Source: Hydrogenimonas sp.
Lineage (GTDB): Bacteria > Campylobacterota > Campylobacteria > Campylobacterales > Hydrogenimonadaceae
Length of the DNA: 32,926 nucleotides
Direction of reading: 5' to 3'
Assembly: GCA_003978765.1 (NCBI GenBank)
Contig: QNYO01000062.1
Coordinates: 1 to 32,926, forward strand
Numbering within the stretch: the stretch's first letter is position 1; every line of letters begins with the position of its first letter. Below are positions 1-2,550 of the stretch, piece by piece. A program made the translations under genes and the position numbers. The notes under the pieces are model-generated. The model had not been told where the DNA came from. It was given only the letters and a program-made list of their open reading frames with translations, and did not search any database.

Positions 1-199
1 AAAGCTCTTTATTGCCTTCAAATATATTTCTTAGCGTATCTAAAAAGAGGCTCTTTCCAAATCGTCTTGGTCGTGCAAGAAAGGCATATTTATAGTTCAA
101 AATAAGCTCTAATGCCTCTTTTGTCTTATCGACATAGACATAATCATTGGTTCTGATTTCTCGTAAATTCTGAATACCTACCGGTAATCTTTTTAGCAT
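1..199 (-). CDS. AAA-ATPase-like / PD-(D/E)XK family protein (DUF1703 type), N-terminal part
   Basis: Only the first 66 codons are present; the gene runs off the left edge. The protein opens [18 protein letters not shown], then VYVDKT, and has the P-loop-like stretch [15 protein letters not shown] at about residues 44-58. This opening is typical of the large AAA-ATPase_like/DUF1703 family, in which an N-terminal ATPase-like domain is followed by a C-terminal PD-(D/E)XK nuclease domain. The family is often present in many copies in Campylobacterota and Bacteroidota, and its function is not established. The ATG has a good Shine-Dalgarno (AGGAG, 7 bases upstream) and a strong -10 box further up, so it is an independent transcription unit. 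The nuclease half is an inference, since it lies outside the window. Confidence 0.8.
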
Positions 200-346: not shown

Positions 347-1777
347 TTAACTCATCTTATTCCGACTGACCAACCATCTCCATCCTATAACTATCAATAG
401 TAGTAAAAAGATTCCAGTTCCTATAAGCACCATATTTTTACTAATGTTTTTGATATCTGATGTTGCACTATCCTCTTTCTCAATACGCATATGCAACGCT
501 TCTTGAAACTCCTCCAACTCTTGAACTACTTTCTCCAAGTAGTGTGTACTCTCTTCATATTTTGCATAAACAATCACTATTTGATTATTCTCTTTTATTG
601 CCTCTTCCAATACTTTCATATGAAGTATAGGCTTCATAGATACAAGAAGGGCTTTATACTCTTCTAATGATCTTTTTAAAATATCTAATGTTTTAGGACT
701 CTCTTTGATTCTATCATTTTCTGATTCAGCTAATGCAAGTATTTTTTGCTGTTCGATTTTTATTCTTATAAAATAACGCATAAGTAGAATCATCAAAGAT
801 TGTGCTTTAATCTCCTCATCTTTGATCTCCATAGCTATTTCTTTGACTTTATCAAGACTCTTATGGTTCAAGTCGGTATTGTCATTCATACGGTATAAAA
901 GCCTATCTAAATAGATAGCAAACATTAATGGTATAAACGCATTATCAGGTTCTGCCAAAATGGCATAGCGAAAATAGTTGGTTGTCAACTGATCATAGTC
1001 AAACTTCTCTTCATAGAGTGTGGAAACAGCATAGATAAAAGCGGGAAGTGTTCTACGCAACTTTTGTTCTCGTGCTAACTCAATAGCCTTTTGTGCATCC
1101 TCTTTTGCTTCTCTATATCGATTCCTTACAAAGAGTAAATAACTTCGTAATACATAATCTTTAATACGCTCTTTGGAATCATCCGTAACAATTTTAAATT
1201 GATCAAGAGCATGTTGCAGAACCTTCTGATTTGACTCTGTAAATAGTGGTTTTTCAGTATCAATAGACTCTTTAAGATACTCCACTATCTTCTCATACTC
1301 AGAAGAGCCATCTTCATTTTGAGGAATAGGTAGTGTAAGCATTTTTTTACTATCATCGACAAATTTATGATAATTATAGGTATTGATAGCAGTCGTCAAG
1401 GTATAATCGATAATGACTTCCGTTGAAAATGTCAATGCTGCTGTTAATATTGCGATGCCACCTGCAATACCAAGCCCTCCTGTTGCCAATGAACCAAAAC
1501 CGATAAGTGCCAAACCGTAATTTGTAGCAGCAATTCCAGAATAACCTGCCAAACTTCCAATCCAACTTCCAATACTGATAACGATTGGAGAGGCTGTACC
1601 TCCTGTAAAAAAGACGATGAATCCTACTGCAATGGCAATGATGGCAGACAATATCCAACCAATAGCTAAAGACTCTACATAGAAAGATTCAAAAGTTGCA
1701 AACTCTTCAGCCAATAATGGCGTAGAAAACAATATAGTAAAACCTACAATTTTCCATACCAATTGCAGTTGCTTCAT
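347..1777 (-). CDS. Exported/membrane protein with Gly-rich hydrophobic N-terminal region and C-terminal anchor
   Basis: I do not recognise a named family. The 476-residue protein starts with a signal peptide (about 1-23, ending LLAEE). Residues about 36-130 are strongly hydrophobic and rich in Gly and Ala, with runs such as SLATGGLGIAGGIAILTAAL; this could be several membrane helices. Residues about 145-310 are helical and charged, and YREAKEDAQKAIELA resembles a TPR-like helical repeat. A second helical, coiled-coil-like stretch precedes one C-terminal membrane helix (about 452-472) with a short basic tail. The ATG overlaps the stop of the upstream nuclease-like gene by one base (TAATG), so the two are probably translationally coupled. 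A membrane partner or immunity-like role is a guess. The region is visibly AT-richer than the central genes. Confidence 0.85.
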   Translation of the reverse strand: MKQLQLVWKIVGFTILFSTPLLAEEFATFESFYVESLAIGWILSAIIAIAVGFIVFFTGGTASPIVISIGSWIGSLAGYSGIAATNYGLALIGFGSLATGGLGIAGGIAILTAALTFSTEVIIDYTLTTAINTYNYHKFVDDSKKMLTLPIPQNEDGSSEYEKIVEYLKESIDTEKPLFTESNQKVLQHALDQFKIVTDDSKERIKDYVLRSYLLFVRNRYREAKEDAQKAIELAREQKLRRTLPAFIYAVSTLYEEKFDYDQLTTNYFRYAILAEPDNAFIPLMFAIYLDRLLYRMNDNTDLNHKSLDKVKEIAMEIKDEEIKAQSLMILLMRYFIRIKIEQQKILALAESENDRIKESPKTLDILKRSLEEYKALLVSMKPILHMKVLEEAIKENNQIVIVYAKYEESTHYLEKVVQELEEFQEALHMRIEKEDSATSDIKNISKNMVLIGTGIFLLLLIVIGWRWLVSRNKMS

Positions 1778-2550
1778 TACAAAAGAGTTAATAAGATTTT
1801 GATCTGTTCAACTTGCTGTTCAGGAGTACCAAAGATCAACTCCACCCCTTTTCTCTTAGCCCAAAACTTATATTGCCGTAGGACTTCTTTATTCTGTGGC
1901 TTTTCTGTAAAGCTAAACACTTTCAAAGTACTATTTTGTGTATGGTTTTGGGCATATAGATTTAATGTATCAAGATCTGCTTTATACTTATCTATTGGCA
2001 TTTTTGTTGAAGAGGCATAGTTCTTTGCCTCTATAAGAATCTCTTTACCATCTTTTTTAAGTAGTACATCAATATCGGTTAATGAATTTTTAACACCATC
2101 ATCAAACTTTTTACCAATAGCAATCACATCAAAGCCCTCTTCAACAGCATGGTTGGCAATACGCAACTCATTTAAATGCCCCTTGGTCACCTGATCACTA
2201 TTGCCAATAATCTTACTTAATGTCTCTTTGAAGCCATCTTTTCCACTGAGATTTTTAAACATTTGCTTCGCTTCAGCACGACTAATCTTTCCTTGATATA
2301 CCGCAATACGTAAATAAATATCTTCCTGCACTTCTTGAGGAAGATTCATCTTTCCAATGATTTTTTTAACCTGCTTAGTCCCTTGAAAACTATCACTTAA
2401 CTTGGAAAGTTTTATAATCTCACTGTCAGGAATACTCTTTGTGCTTTCTAAAAACGTACCAAAAAACTTTGCTATTTTGATAGTATTTGTAATTTGATCA
2501 GCTGTTGCATATCCTAAAAGTAACCATATAAACAAAAAGATCTTTCTCAT
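1777..2550 (-). CDS. Secreted PD-(D/E)XK nuclease-like protein
   Basis: The 257-residue protein begins with a short signal peptide (MRKIFLFIWLLLGYATADQ). Residues about 25-120 form a helical region of unknown role. The C-terminal half carries a restriction-endonuclease-like pattern: GHLNELRIA with E128, then TDIDVLL with D161, then ILIEAKNY with E174-x-K176. This E...D...ExK layout is the PD-(D/E)XK core seen in Mrr-like and 'Tox-REase' nucleases. A nuclease behind a signal peptide is unusual: it should reach the periplasm or outside, so DNA uptake/processing or an antibacterial toxin are possible roles (inference). The start is supported by GAGGAG 7 bases before the ATG. It is the first gene of a two-gene unit with the membrane protein that follows. 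Confidence 0.85.
   Translation of the reverse strand: MRKIFLFIWLLLGYATADQITNTIKIAKFFGTFLESTKSIPDSEIIKLSKLSDSFQGTKQVKKIIGKMNLPQEVQEDIYLRIAVYQGKISRAEAKQMFKNLSGKDGFKETLSKIIGNSDQVTKGHLNELRIANHAVEEGFDVIAIGKKFDDGVKNSLTDIDVLLKKDGKEILIEAKNYASSTKMPIDKYKADLDTLNLYAQNHTQNSTLKVFSFTEKPQNKEVLRQYKFWAKRKGVELIFGTPEQQVEQIKILLTLL

What the first reader, a model, noticed from the sequence alone, without database searches (positions are those of the whole stretch)
347..2550. Secreted PD-(D/E)XK nuclease coupled to a Gly-rich membrane protein
A signal peptide directly ahead of an E128/D161/E174-x-K176 nuclease core is rare. The next gene starts on its stop codon (TAATG) and encodes an exported protein with a Gly/Ala-rich hydrophobic region, helical repeats and a C-terminal anchor. 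The pair could be a periplasmic anti-DNA defence (against incoming phage or plasmid DNA), a toxin with its membrane immunity or delivery partner, or a DNA-uptake nuclease. The region is AT-rich and beside another nuclease-superfamily gene (1-199).
Basis: partly seen in the sequence, partly recalled or inferred. Interest (0 to 1): 0.62.

Follow-up and report, generated by a model that had tools for sequence, protein, structure and literature searches.

The report
Exported nuclease with membrane docking partner
Two overlapping bacterial genes encode an exported DNA-cutting enzyme and a membrane protein that travel together across several bacterial phyla, often beside antiviral genes, and may form an unrecognised trap for DNA crossing the cell envelope.

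Summary
On the minus strand, window 1777-2550 encodes an exported PD-(D/E)XK nuclease (E128, D161, E174-x-K176) and 347-1777 an exported Gly-rich membrane protein with a TPR-like domain and a C-terminal anchor. Neither passes a Pfam or NCBIfam cut-off. A catalytic-motif scan of GTDB genomes found 17 true nuclease homologs (36-50% identity) among 19 hits. In 15 of the 17 the same membrane protein starts directly downstream, mostly with a 4-nt overlap. E128, D161 and K176 are invariant in 18 of 18 pairs (E174 in 17). The partners' divergences correlate (r=0.72). Two distant relatives of the membrane protein instead follow an exported WHH/colicin-type DNase and its SUKH immunity protein, so the nuclease is exchangeable. 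One solo nuclease carries its own membrane anchor. Several loci sit in defence contexts: inside BREX, beside type I or III restriction genes, Septu, or CRISPR arrays; enrichment over controls is moderate. Best reading (0.45): a nuclease docked on the periplasmic face of the inner membrane that cuts incoming DNA. Main rival (0.27): an exported anti-bacterial toxin with a membrane partner. The window copy is a rare, low-GC insertion absent from its relatives. No activity has been tested.

The parts
1777..2550 (-). Exported PD-(D/E)XK nuclease, 257 aa
   Evidence: ORF; 17 homologs from the motif scan; AF2 pLDDT 88.2; VIA-align Z 12.4 to 1y88, rmsd 3.1, 115 aligned
2497..2550 (-). Signal-peptide-like N-terminus (residues 1-18) of the nuclease
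   Evidence: heuristic scan, 20 of 21 homologs alike
2167..2169 (-). Catalytic E128 codon, in the helix before the core strands
   Evidence: 18 of 18 pairs
2068..2070 (-). Catalytic D161 codon
   Evidence: 18 of 18 pairs
2023..2031 (-). E174-A-K176 (ExK) codons
   Evidence: E174 17 of 18, K176 18 of 18
347..1777 (-). Exported Gly-rich/TPR-like membrane protein, 476 aa, overlapping the nuclease stop codon
   Evidence: ORF; homologs in nuclease loci
1391..1603 (-). Gly/Ala-rich hydrophobic region (residues 59-129)
   Evidence: invariant glycines in A2 and A5; PADLOC PDC-M09A match to residues 68-206, 2.5e-9
590..1372 (-). Helical TPR-like solenoid (residues 136-396), predicted periplasmic
   Evidence: AF2 pLDDT mostly 80-97; TPR structures top the structural lists
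383..433 (-). C-terminal transmembrane segment (residues 449-465) with basic tail
2..199 (-). Start of an AAA-ATPase_like gene, cut by the contig end; a neighbour, probably not part of the module
   Evidence: PF09820 2.8e-22

Best explanation
The two genes form a module in which a Sec-exported PD-(D/E)XK nuclease works in the periplasm together with an inner-membrane partner. The partner's glycine-rich helices sit in the membrane and its TPR-like domain faces the periplasm, where it docks or gates the nuclease. The nuclease cuts DNA on its way across the envelope (phage injection, conjugation or transformation). The chromosome is spared because the nuclease is kept on the other side of the inner membrane. 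Shown by computation: nuclease fold and conserved catalytic residues, export-like N-termini, strict gene pairing, co-divergence, exchangeable nuclease type, positive C-terminal tails of the anchor. Inferred: location, docking, and DNA in transit as the target.
For: Pairing: the partner follows the nuclease in 15 of 17 homologs found with the nuclease motif alone. The exceptions are L030, whose nuclease 3' part is lost, and L042, a nuclease with its own C-terminal transmembrane segment and +4 tail followed by an unrelated gene. L042 places the catalytic domain on the periplasmic face of the inner membrane. Overlap of 4 nt in 15 of 20 pairs. Identity matrices of the two proteins correlate, r=0.72, 0 of 2000 permutations as high (18 pairs). 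Topology: 9 of 20 partners have a C-terminal TM; in the 8 with a single one the tail charge is +1 to +4, which puts the TPR-like domain in the periplasm. Defence settings: Thauera sp. 28 L060, in line between PglX and PglZ with ZorA/ZorB-like genes; T. phenylacetica L061, next to PglZ and BrxL; L069, HKD+Snf2 helicase and type III methylase; L074, PtuA-like ATPase; L123, HsdR (PF04313) and a WYL regulator; CRISPR arrays in L064 (starting about 200 nt from the nuclease start) and L059. No cytosolic immunity gene is evident in the PD-(D/E)XK loci.
Against: Many loci have ordinary neighbours (L063, L065-L068, L070, L092). Locus-level enrichment is weak: 4 or 5 of 21 loci with strong PADLOC hits against 2 of 40 control regions, p=0.10 or 0.04; 7 of 21 only if CRISPR arrays are added after the fact, p=0.006. 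The two Thauera loci are probably not independent. The WHH + SUKH version looks like a polymorphic-toxin cassette. WHH is described as largely restricted to polymorphic toxins (PMC3482391, passage), and a cytosolic immunity protein is odd for an enzyme acting only outside the cytoplasm. No activity, export or localisation has been measured; the membrane region of the partner model has low confidence.
Confidence: 0.45

Rival explanations
1. The nuclease is an exported anti-bacterial toxin (Sec-type polymorphic toxin). The membrane partner helps release it or lets it into a target cell, or protects the producer; immunity is by a separate protein (SUKH in the WHH version) or by the partner itself.
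For: Two distant partner relatives follow an exported WHH/Colicin-DNase protein and a SUKH protein (PF14414 1.1e-16 and 1.5e-13; PF09346 2.3e-23 and 4.6e-21). WHH with Imm-SUKH is a recorded toxin/immunity combination (PMC3482391 passages). The nuclease core also aligns with CdiA-CT toxins (4g6u Z 8.3, rmsd 3.6, 115 aligned; 4zqu Z 7.9, rmsd 3.2, 104 aligned). Distribution is patchy.
Against: No immunity-like gene recognised with the PD-(D/E)XK version; no secretion or adhesion domain found; the partner is larger and more conserved than typical immunity proteins (the comparison with typical ones is recalled); a self-anchored solo nuclease (L042) could hardly be delivered; insertion in line within BREX operons.
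Confidence: 0.27
2. Periplasm-stored suicide nuclease: on infection or envelope damage the partner's glycine-rich helices open and let the nuclease into the cytoplasm, killing the infected cell.
For: Conserved glycine-rich hydrophobic region (invariant glycines); a cytosolic SUKH guard in the WHH version; defence settings as above.
Against: The channel idea rests on composition alone; that region is modelled at pLDDT under 50. The solo anchored L042 lacks such a partner.
Confidence: 0.12
3. Housekeeping: extracellular or periplasmic DNA degradation for uptake or nutrition, or a competence nuclease.
For: Export plus nuclease fold; several hosts look like environmental bacteria (record titles).
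Against: Very patchy: 1 of 298 genomes of the window's phylum and 2 of 300 of the order of Thauera; no link to competence genes seen in the neighbour lists; low-GC insertion. Not tested directly.
Confidence: 0.1

Closest known systems
SNIPE (membrane-bound GIY-YIG nuclease that cuts phage DNA during injection; PMC13190303)
   Same: Inner-membrane nuclease proposed to meet DNA at entry; anchoring also serves to spare the chromosome.
   Different: SNIPE is one protein with DUF4041 and GIY-YIG domains in the cytoplasm (abstract and passages read). Here: PD-(D/E)XK fold, export signal, separate TPR-like/Gly-rich partner, predicted periplasmic side.
Sec-exported polymorphic toxins with WHH nuclease and SUKH immunity (PMC3482391)
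   Same: Distant relatives of the partner occur with exactly such a toxin and immunity pair.
   Different: The main family carries a PD-(D/E)XK nuclease, has no recognisable immunity gene, and has a dedicated membrane partner. A Gly-rich TPR partner was not found in the passages searched; the whole paper was not read.
CRISPR ancillary nucleases Can2/Card1/Cdn1 and AF1548
   Same: Nuclease core: Z 12.4 (1y88, rmsd 3.1, 115 aligned), 12.1 (Cdn1, 2.8, 121), 11.8 (Can2, 2.5, 119).
   Different: Those CRISPR nucleases have a cyclic-oligoadenylate sensor domain and are cytosolic (recalled); ours has a helical N-terminal domain and an export signal.
PADLOC candidate PDC-M09A
   Same: Shares the glycine-rich membrane region (2.5e-9).
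   Different: Its proteins seen here lack an evident signal peptide and the TPR part and, in the loci viewed, lie near small CxxCxxCC proteins, not beside this nuclease. No paper naming PDC-M09 was found.
Zorya and Kiwa
   Same: Membrane component plus DNA-targeting component.
   Different: No Zorya or Kiwa model was matched by the pair at E up to 10; the ZorA-type hit is a neighbour in L060.

Membership tests
PD-(D/E)XK nuclease superfamily | Core alpha/beta fold | tested here: met
   AF2 model pLDDT 88.2; many PD-(D/E)XK structures at Z 8-12 over about 105-130 residues
PD-(D/E)XK nuclease superfamily | Conserved D...(D/E)xK plus helix E | tested here: met
   E128, D161, K176 18/18; E174 17/18
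PD-(D/E)XK nuclease superfamily | Metal-dependent DNA cleavage | not testable with these tools
   needs the purified protein
NERD domain (PF08378) | Score above Pfam gathering cut-off | tested here: not met
   15.1 bits against 22.1 for P0001; weak hits in 9 of 16 members, best E 0.015; 18.0 bits in L123
SNIPE | GIY-YIG and DUF4041 domains in one membrane protein | tested here: not met
   No such Pfam hit in P0001 or P0002 at E up to 10; fold is PD-(D/E)XK
SNIPE | Nuclease on the cytoplasmic side | tested here: inconclusive
   Sequence predicts the periplasmic side; not measured
Polymorphic toxin system, Sec type | Export signal plus C-terminal nuclease | tested here: met
Polymorphic toxin system, Sec type | Adjacent immunity gene | tested here: inconclusive
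   SUKH present in L094 and L095; none recognised beside the PD-(D/E)XK version in the neighbour lists, though an unknown immunity family cannot be excluded
PDC-M09 candidate system | Full-length match to PDC-M09A and its partner genes | tested here: not met
   Only residues 68-206 match profile positions 171-306 of 330; partner genes differ
Core BREX component | Present in most BREX loci | tested here: inconclusive
   BREX genes were seen at only 2 of the 21 loci whose neighbours were scanned, so the pair does not need BREX; BREX loci in general were not surveyed for the pair

The most novel reading that the evidence does not exclude
A so far unnamed immune module works outside the cytoplasm: exchangeable exported nuclease warheads (PD-(D/E)XK, or WHH with a SUKH guard) are docked on a dedicated glycine-zipper/TPR inner-membrane protein and destroy phage or plasmid DNA while it crosses the periplasm. 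It would be restriction at the periplasmic face, with self/non-self discrimination by compartment alone.
Probability: 0.33. Interest if true: 0.87.

Novelty: new variant of a known kind. Interest (0 to 1): 0.63.

Why it matters
The DNA-targeting defences tabulated in a 2026 review (PMC12904381, passages read) act in the cytoplasm as far as those passages say, and 'periplasm' does not occur in its text. A defence that cuts DNA in the periplasm would discriminate self from non-self by place alone, with no sequence or modification code. If the toxin reading is right instead, the module is a new Sec-type toxin class with a dedicated membrane partner and exchangeable nucleases. Either way it gives function hypotheses, catalytic residues and test constructs for two protein families that have no Pfam or NCBIfam model.

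Tried and rejected
Searches that led nowhere. P0001 as a single query found no relative in genome contigs or viral contigs; the alignment A1 found none in viral contigs. No match in plasmids (P0001 and P0002; L046 nuclease) or phages (L037 nuclease). PDB sequence search gave no meaningful hit for P0001 or A1 and only weak solenoid-like hits for A2. The helical N-terminal region of the nuclease showed no profile similarity to the WHH proteins' N-termini (hhalign probability 0.3). The weak first-look hits G070/G094 and G003/G058 were judged not true relatives of the pair (L007 not read by eye). Foldseek against viral models gave mostly generic PD-(D/E)XK-type matches.

Rejected ideas. Chance ORFs: excluded by conservation. 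A phage or plasmid gene: no hits in those collections. A subunit that belongs to BREX only: most loci scanned have no BREX genes. Membership in NERD, SNIPE or PDC-M09: see the membership table. Similarity of the Gly-rich region to eukaryotic ISG12/IFI6 proteins is recalled only and was not tested; DUF726 came up weakly in 3 of 14 members (best E 0.0033).

Results against my reading. The control set A4 also held strong PADLOC hits (MTase_II, Cas3e; 2 or 3 proteins of 132); the second control A6 held none but mad3 at 1e-20 (130 ORFs). My gene calling by ORF length and GC3 is rough in GC-rich genomes. The locus-level test is weak, and counting CRISPR arrays was decided after seeing them. The Fisher tests used 2 control hits; with 3 they would be weaker.

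Full report
WHAT IS THERE. The window is contig C10 of its assembly, bases 1-32926. I take the organism to be of the Campylobacterota from its gene content; this is an inference, no call names it. Two minus-strand ORFs match the finding: 1777-2550 (P0001, 257 aa) and 347-1777 (P0002, 476 aa), overlapping by one base in TAATG. Window 2-199 is the start of an AAA-ATPase_like gene (PF09820). Upstream lie an ABC ATPase and then housekeeping genes.

NOT A KNOWN FAMILY. P0001 gets only a sub-threshold NERD hit (15.1 bits, cut-off 22.1), and P0002 only sub-threshold TPR hits. NCBIfam gives nothing real. PADLOC gives a weak Unk_05 hit (0.0085) for P0001 and PDC-M09A (2.5e-9, residues 68-206 only) for P0002. 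PHROGs gives only weak hits.

THE FAMILY FOUND. Simple searches with P0001 found no clear relative beyond the window. A DNA pattern for [ST]-D-I-D-x12-E-A-K-x-Y over GTDB contigs gave 19 stretches. In 17 the surrounding ORF is a P0001 homolog; L040 and L047 are chance. Hosts by record title include Thauera, Allochromatium, Thiocapsa, Thiospirillum, Thiomargarita, Parabeggiatoa, Albidovulum, Desulfovibrio, Lutibacter, Acidobacteriia, Nitratiruptor and a Campylobacterota MAG. Further homologs came from whole-genome profile searches: G373, G676, G858, G860 and G861, and G930, which was found through the partner. The family is rare: 4 of 147, 2 of 300, 1 of 298 and 5 of 42 genomes in the orders or phylum searched; these counts include the genomes used as centres.

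THE PAIR IS REAL. In 15 of the 17 motif-scan loci the next gene is a P0002 homolog; in L034, L036 and L041 it is cut by the end of the stretch held. The exceptions are L030, whose nuclease gene loses its 3' part after the catalytic motif, and L042, a nuclease with its own C-terminal transmembrane helix and no partner. The partner also follows the nuclease in L069, L073, L091, L092 and L123, and as a broken fragment in L093. The overlap is 4 nt in 15 of 20 pairs. Pairwise identities of the two proteins correlate at r=0.72, reached by 0 of 2000 permutations (18 pairs). This shows co-inheritance; shared species history is not removed.

STRUCTURE. P0001 is modelled at pLDDT 88.2. Its core (about 119-257) aligns best with AF1548 (Z 12.4, rmsd 3.1, 115 aligned), Cdn1 (12.1, 2.8, 121) and Can2 (11.8, 2.5, 119), and with many restriction-type nucleases. 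P0002 is modelled at pLDDT 75.1. The Gly-rich part (50-132) is under 50, the helical solenoid 136-396 is good, and a long helix runs 398-475. The best structural neighbours are TPR proteins at Z about 10-12, within the range that helical repeats reach anyway.

TOPOLOGY. Nuclease N-termini look like signal peptides in 20 of 21 (heuristic; the exception L073 may be a start-codon error). 9 of 20 partners have a C-terminal transmembrane segment; the 8 with a single one have positive tails, which by the positive-inside rule places the preceding TPR-like domain in the periplasm. The solo nuclease L042 has a +4 tail after its anchor, which by the same rule leaves its catalytic domain in the periplasm.

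AN EXCHANGEABLE NUCLEASE. The partner profile, run over 147 genomes, gave full-length matches only in three of the four genomes that hold the nuclease; the fourth is L042's. It also gave two distant relatives, L094 and L095, in genomes G279 and G395. Both stand in three-gene sets: an exported protein ending in a WHH/Colicin-DNase domain, then a SUKH protein, then the Gly-rich TPR membrane protein. WHH with SUKH is a recorded toxin/immunity combination (PMC3482391, passages).

SURROUNDINGS. L060 (Thauera sp. 28): BrxC, PglX, the pair, PglZ, ZorA/ZorB-like genes and BrxL, all in line (the family calls are given per set of ORFs, so the names of single genes are partly by reading). L061 (T. phenylacetica): BrxL and PglZ beside the pair. 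L069: HKD+Snf2 protein and type III methylase. L074: PtuA-like ATPase (AAA_15) and a small protein that I read as PtuB (no Pfam hit at 0.01). L091: a large methylase-type protein, read as a restriction-modification enzyme. L123: HsdR and a WYL regulator; WYL regulators also lie near the nuclease in L036 and L073. CRISPR arrays: L064 has three, one starting about 200 nt from the nuclease start, and L059 has one. Other loci look ordinary. PADLOC at 1e-100: at least 9 of 133 neighbour ORFs from 21 loci against 2 or 3 of 262 control ORFs. Fisher p=0.0013 if 2, but ORFs of one operon are not independent. By locus, 4 or 5 of 21 against 2 of 40 gives p=0.10 or 0.04. The defence link is therefore suggestive, strongest in single loci such as L060.

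IN THE WINDOW. The pair has 34.3% GC against 42.3% (SD 2.2) for the rest. The flanking ABC gene is in 18 of 18 genus genomes. In the 10 relatives whose flanks I read, none has the pair behind it; in the closest (92% identity) a small unrelated gene follows at once. The pair is a lineage-specific insertion.

MECHANISM. The simplest reading of an exported nuclease, a partner with its soluble domain in the periplasm, an exchangeable nuclease, a self-anchored variant and a bias to defence neighbourhoods is an envelope-side nuclease acting on DNA in transit. SNIPE shows that membrane-bound nucleases can cut phage DNA during injection, but from the cytoplasmic side (PMC13190303, abstract and passages). 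The SUKH gene in the WHH version is the best argument for a toxin origin or function; it may instead guard the cytosol before export. I cannot decide between these without an assay.

LITERATURE. Searches for PDC-M09, BREX with periplasmic nuclease, SUKH/WHH with signal peptide, ISG12-like prokaryotic conflict systems, periplasmic anti-phage nucleases and a domain combination showed no description of this pair in their listings. The BREX survey PMC12839542 has none of my terms (signal peptide, periplasm, TPR, Thauera, membrane-associated, secreted). The DefensePredictor paper PMC13092281 has no 'periplasm' or 'signal peptide' in its main text. The library holds open-licence papers only.

Noticed in passing
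G000:C30:277-645 (L014, L050) and 23 of 150 genomes of the phylum: PDC-M09A-type Gly-rich membrane proteins are common in the phylum. In the loci read (L005, L006, L097) they lie near a small CxxCxxCC protein that I read as YkgJ-like; function unknown.
   Followed up: partly
L094:5233-7809 and L095:5778-8341: Three-gene sets of exported WHH/Colicin-DNase protein, SUKH protein and Gly-rich TPR membrane protein.
   Followed up: yes
L063:9490-10437 (= L042): Nuclease with its own C-terminal membrane anchor and no partner gene.
   Followed up: partly
L059:6995-9402, L061:17349-18263, L069:7917-8459: GTPase or DUF697-type genes recur next to the pair: YcjX (PF04317) and DUF697 in L059, an MMR_HSR1 GTPase in L061, a just sub-threshold DUF697 protein in L069. 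Could be a third component.
   Followed up: no
L038:3185-3466 and L091:7606-8088: A similar exported protein (LHFEFEVTETR...) lies behind the pair in two loci; no Pfam hit for the L091 copy.
   Followed up: no
L030:2170-2460: The nuclease gene is broken soon after its catalytic motif and runs into unrelated sequence that looks like toxin-antitoxin remnants (read by eye).
   Followed up: no
window 2-199 and L039:1393-2934: Both have an AAA-ATPase_like type gene near the pair (PF09820 for the window; L039 by reading only).
   Followed up: no
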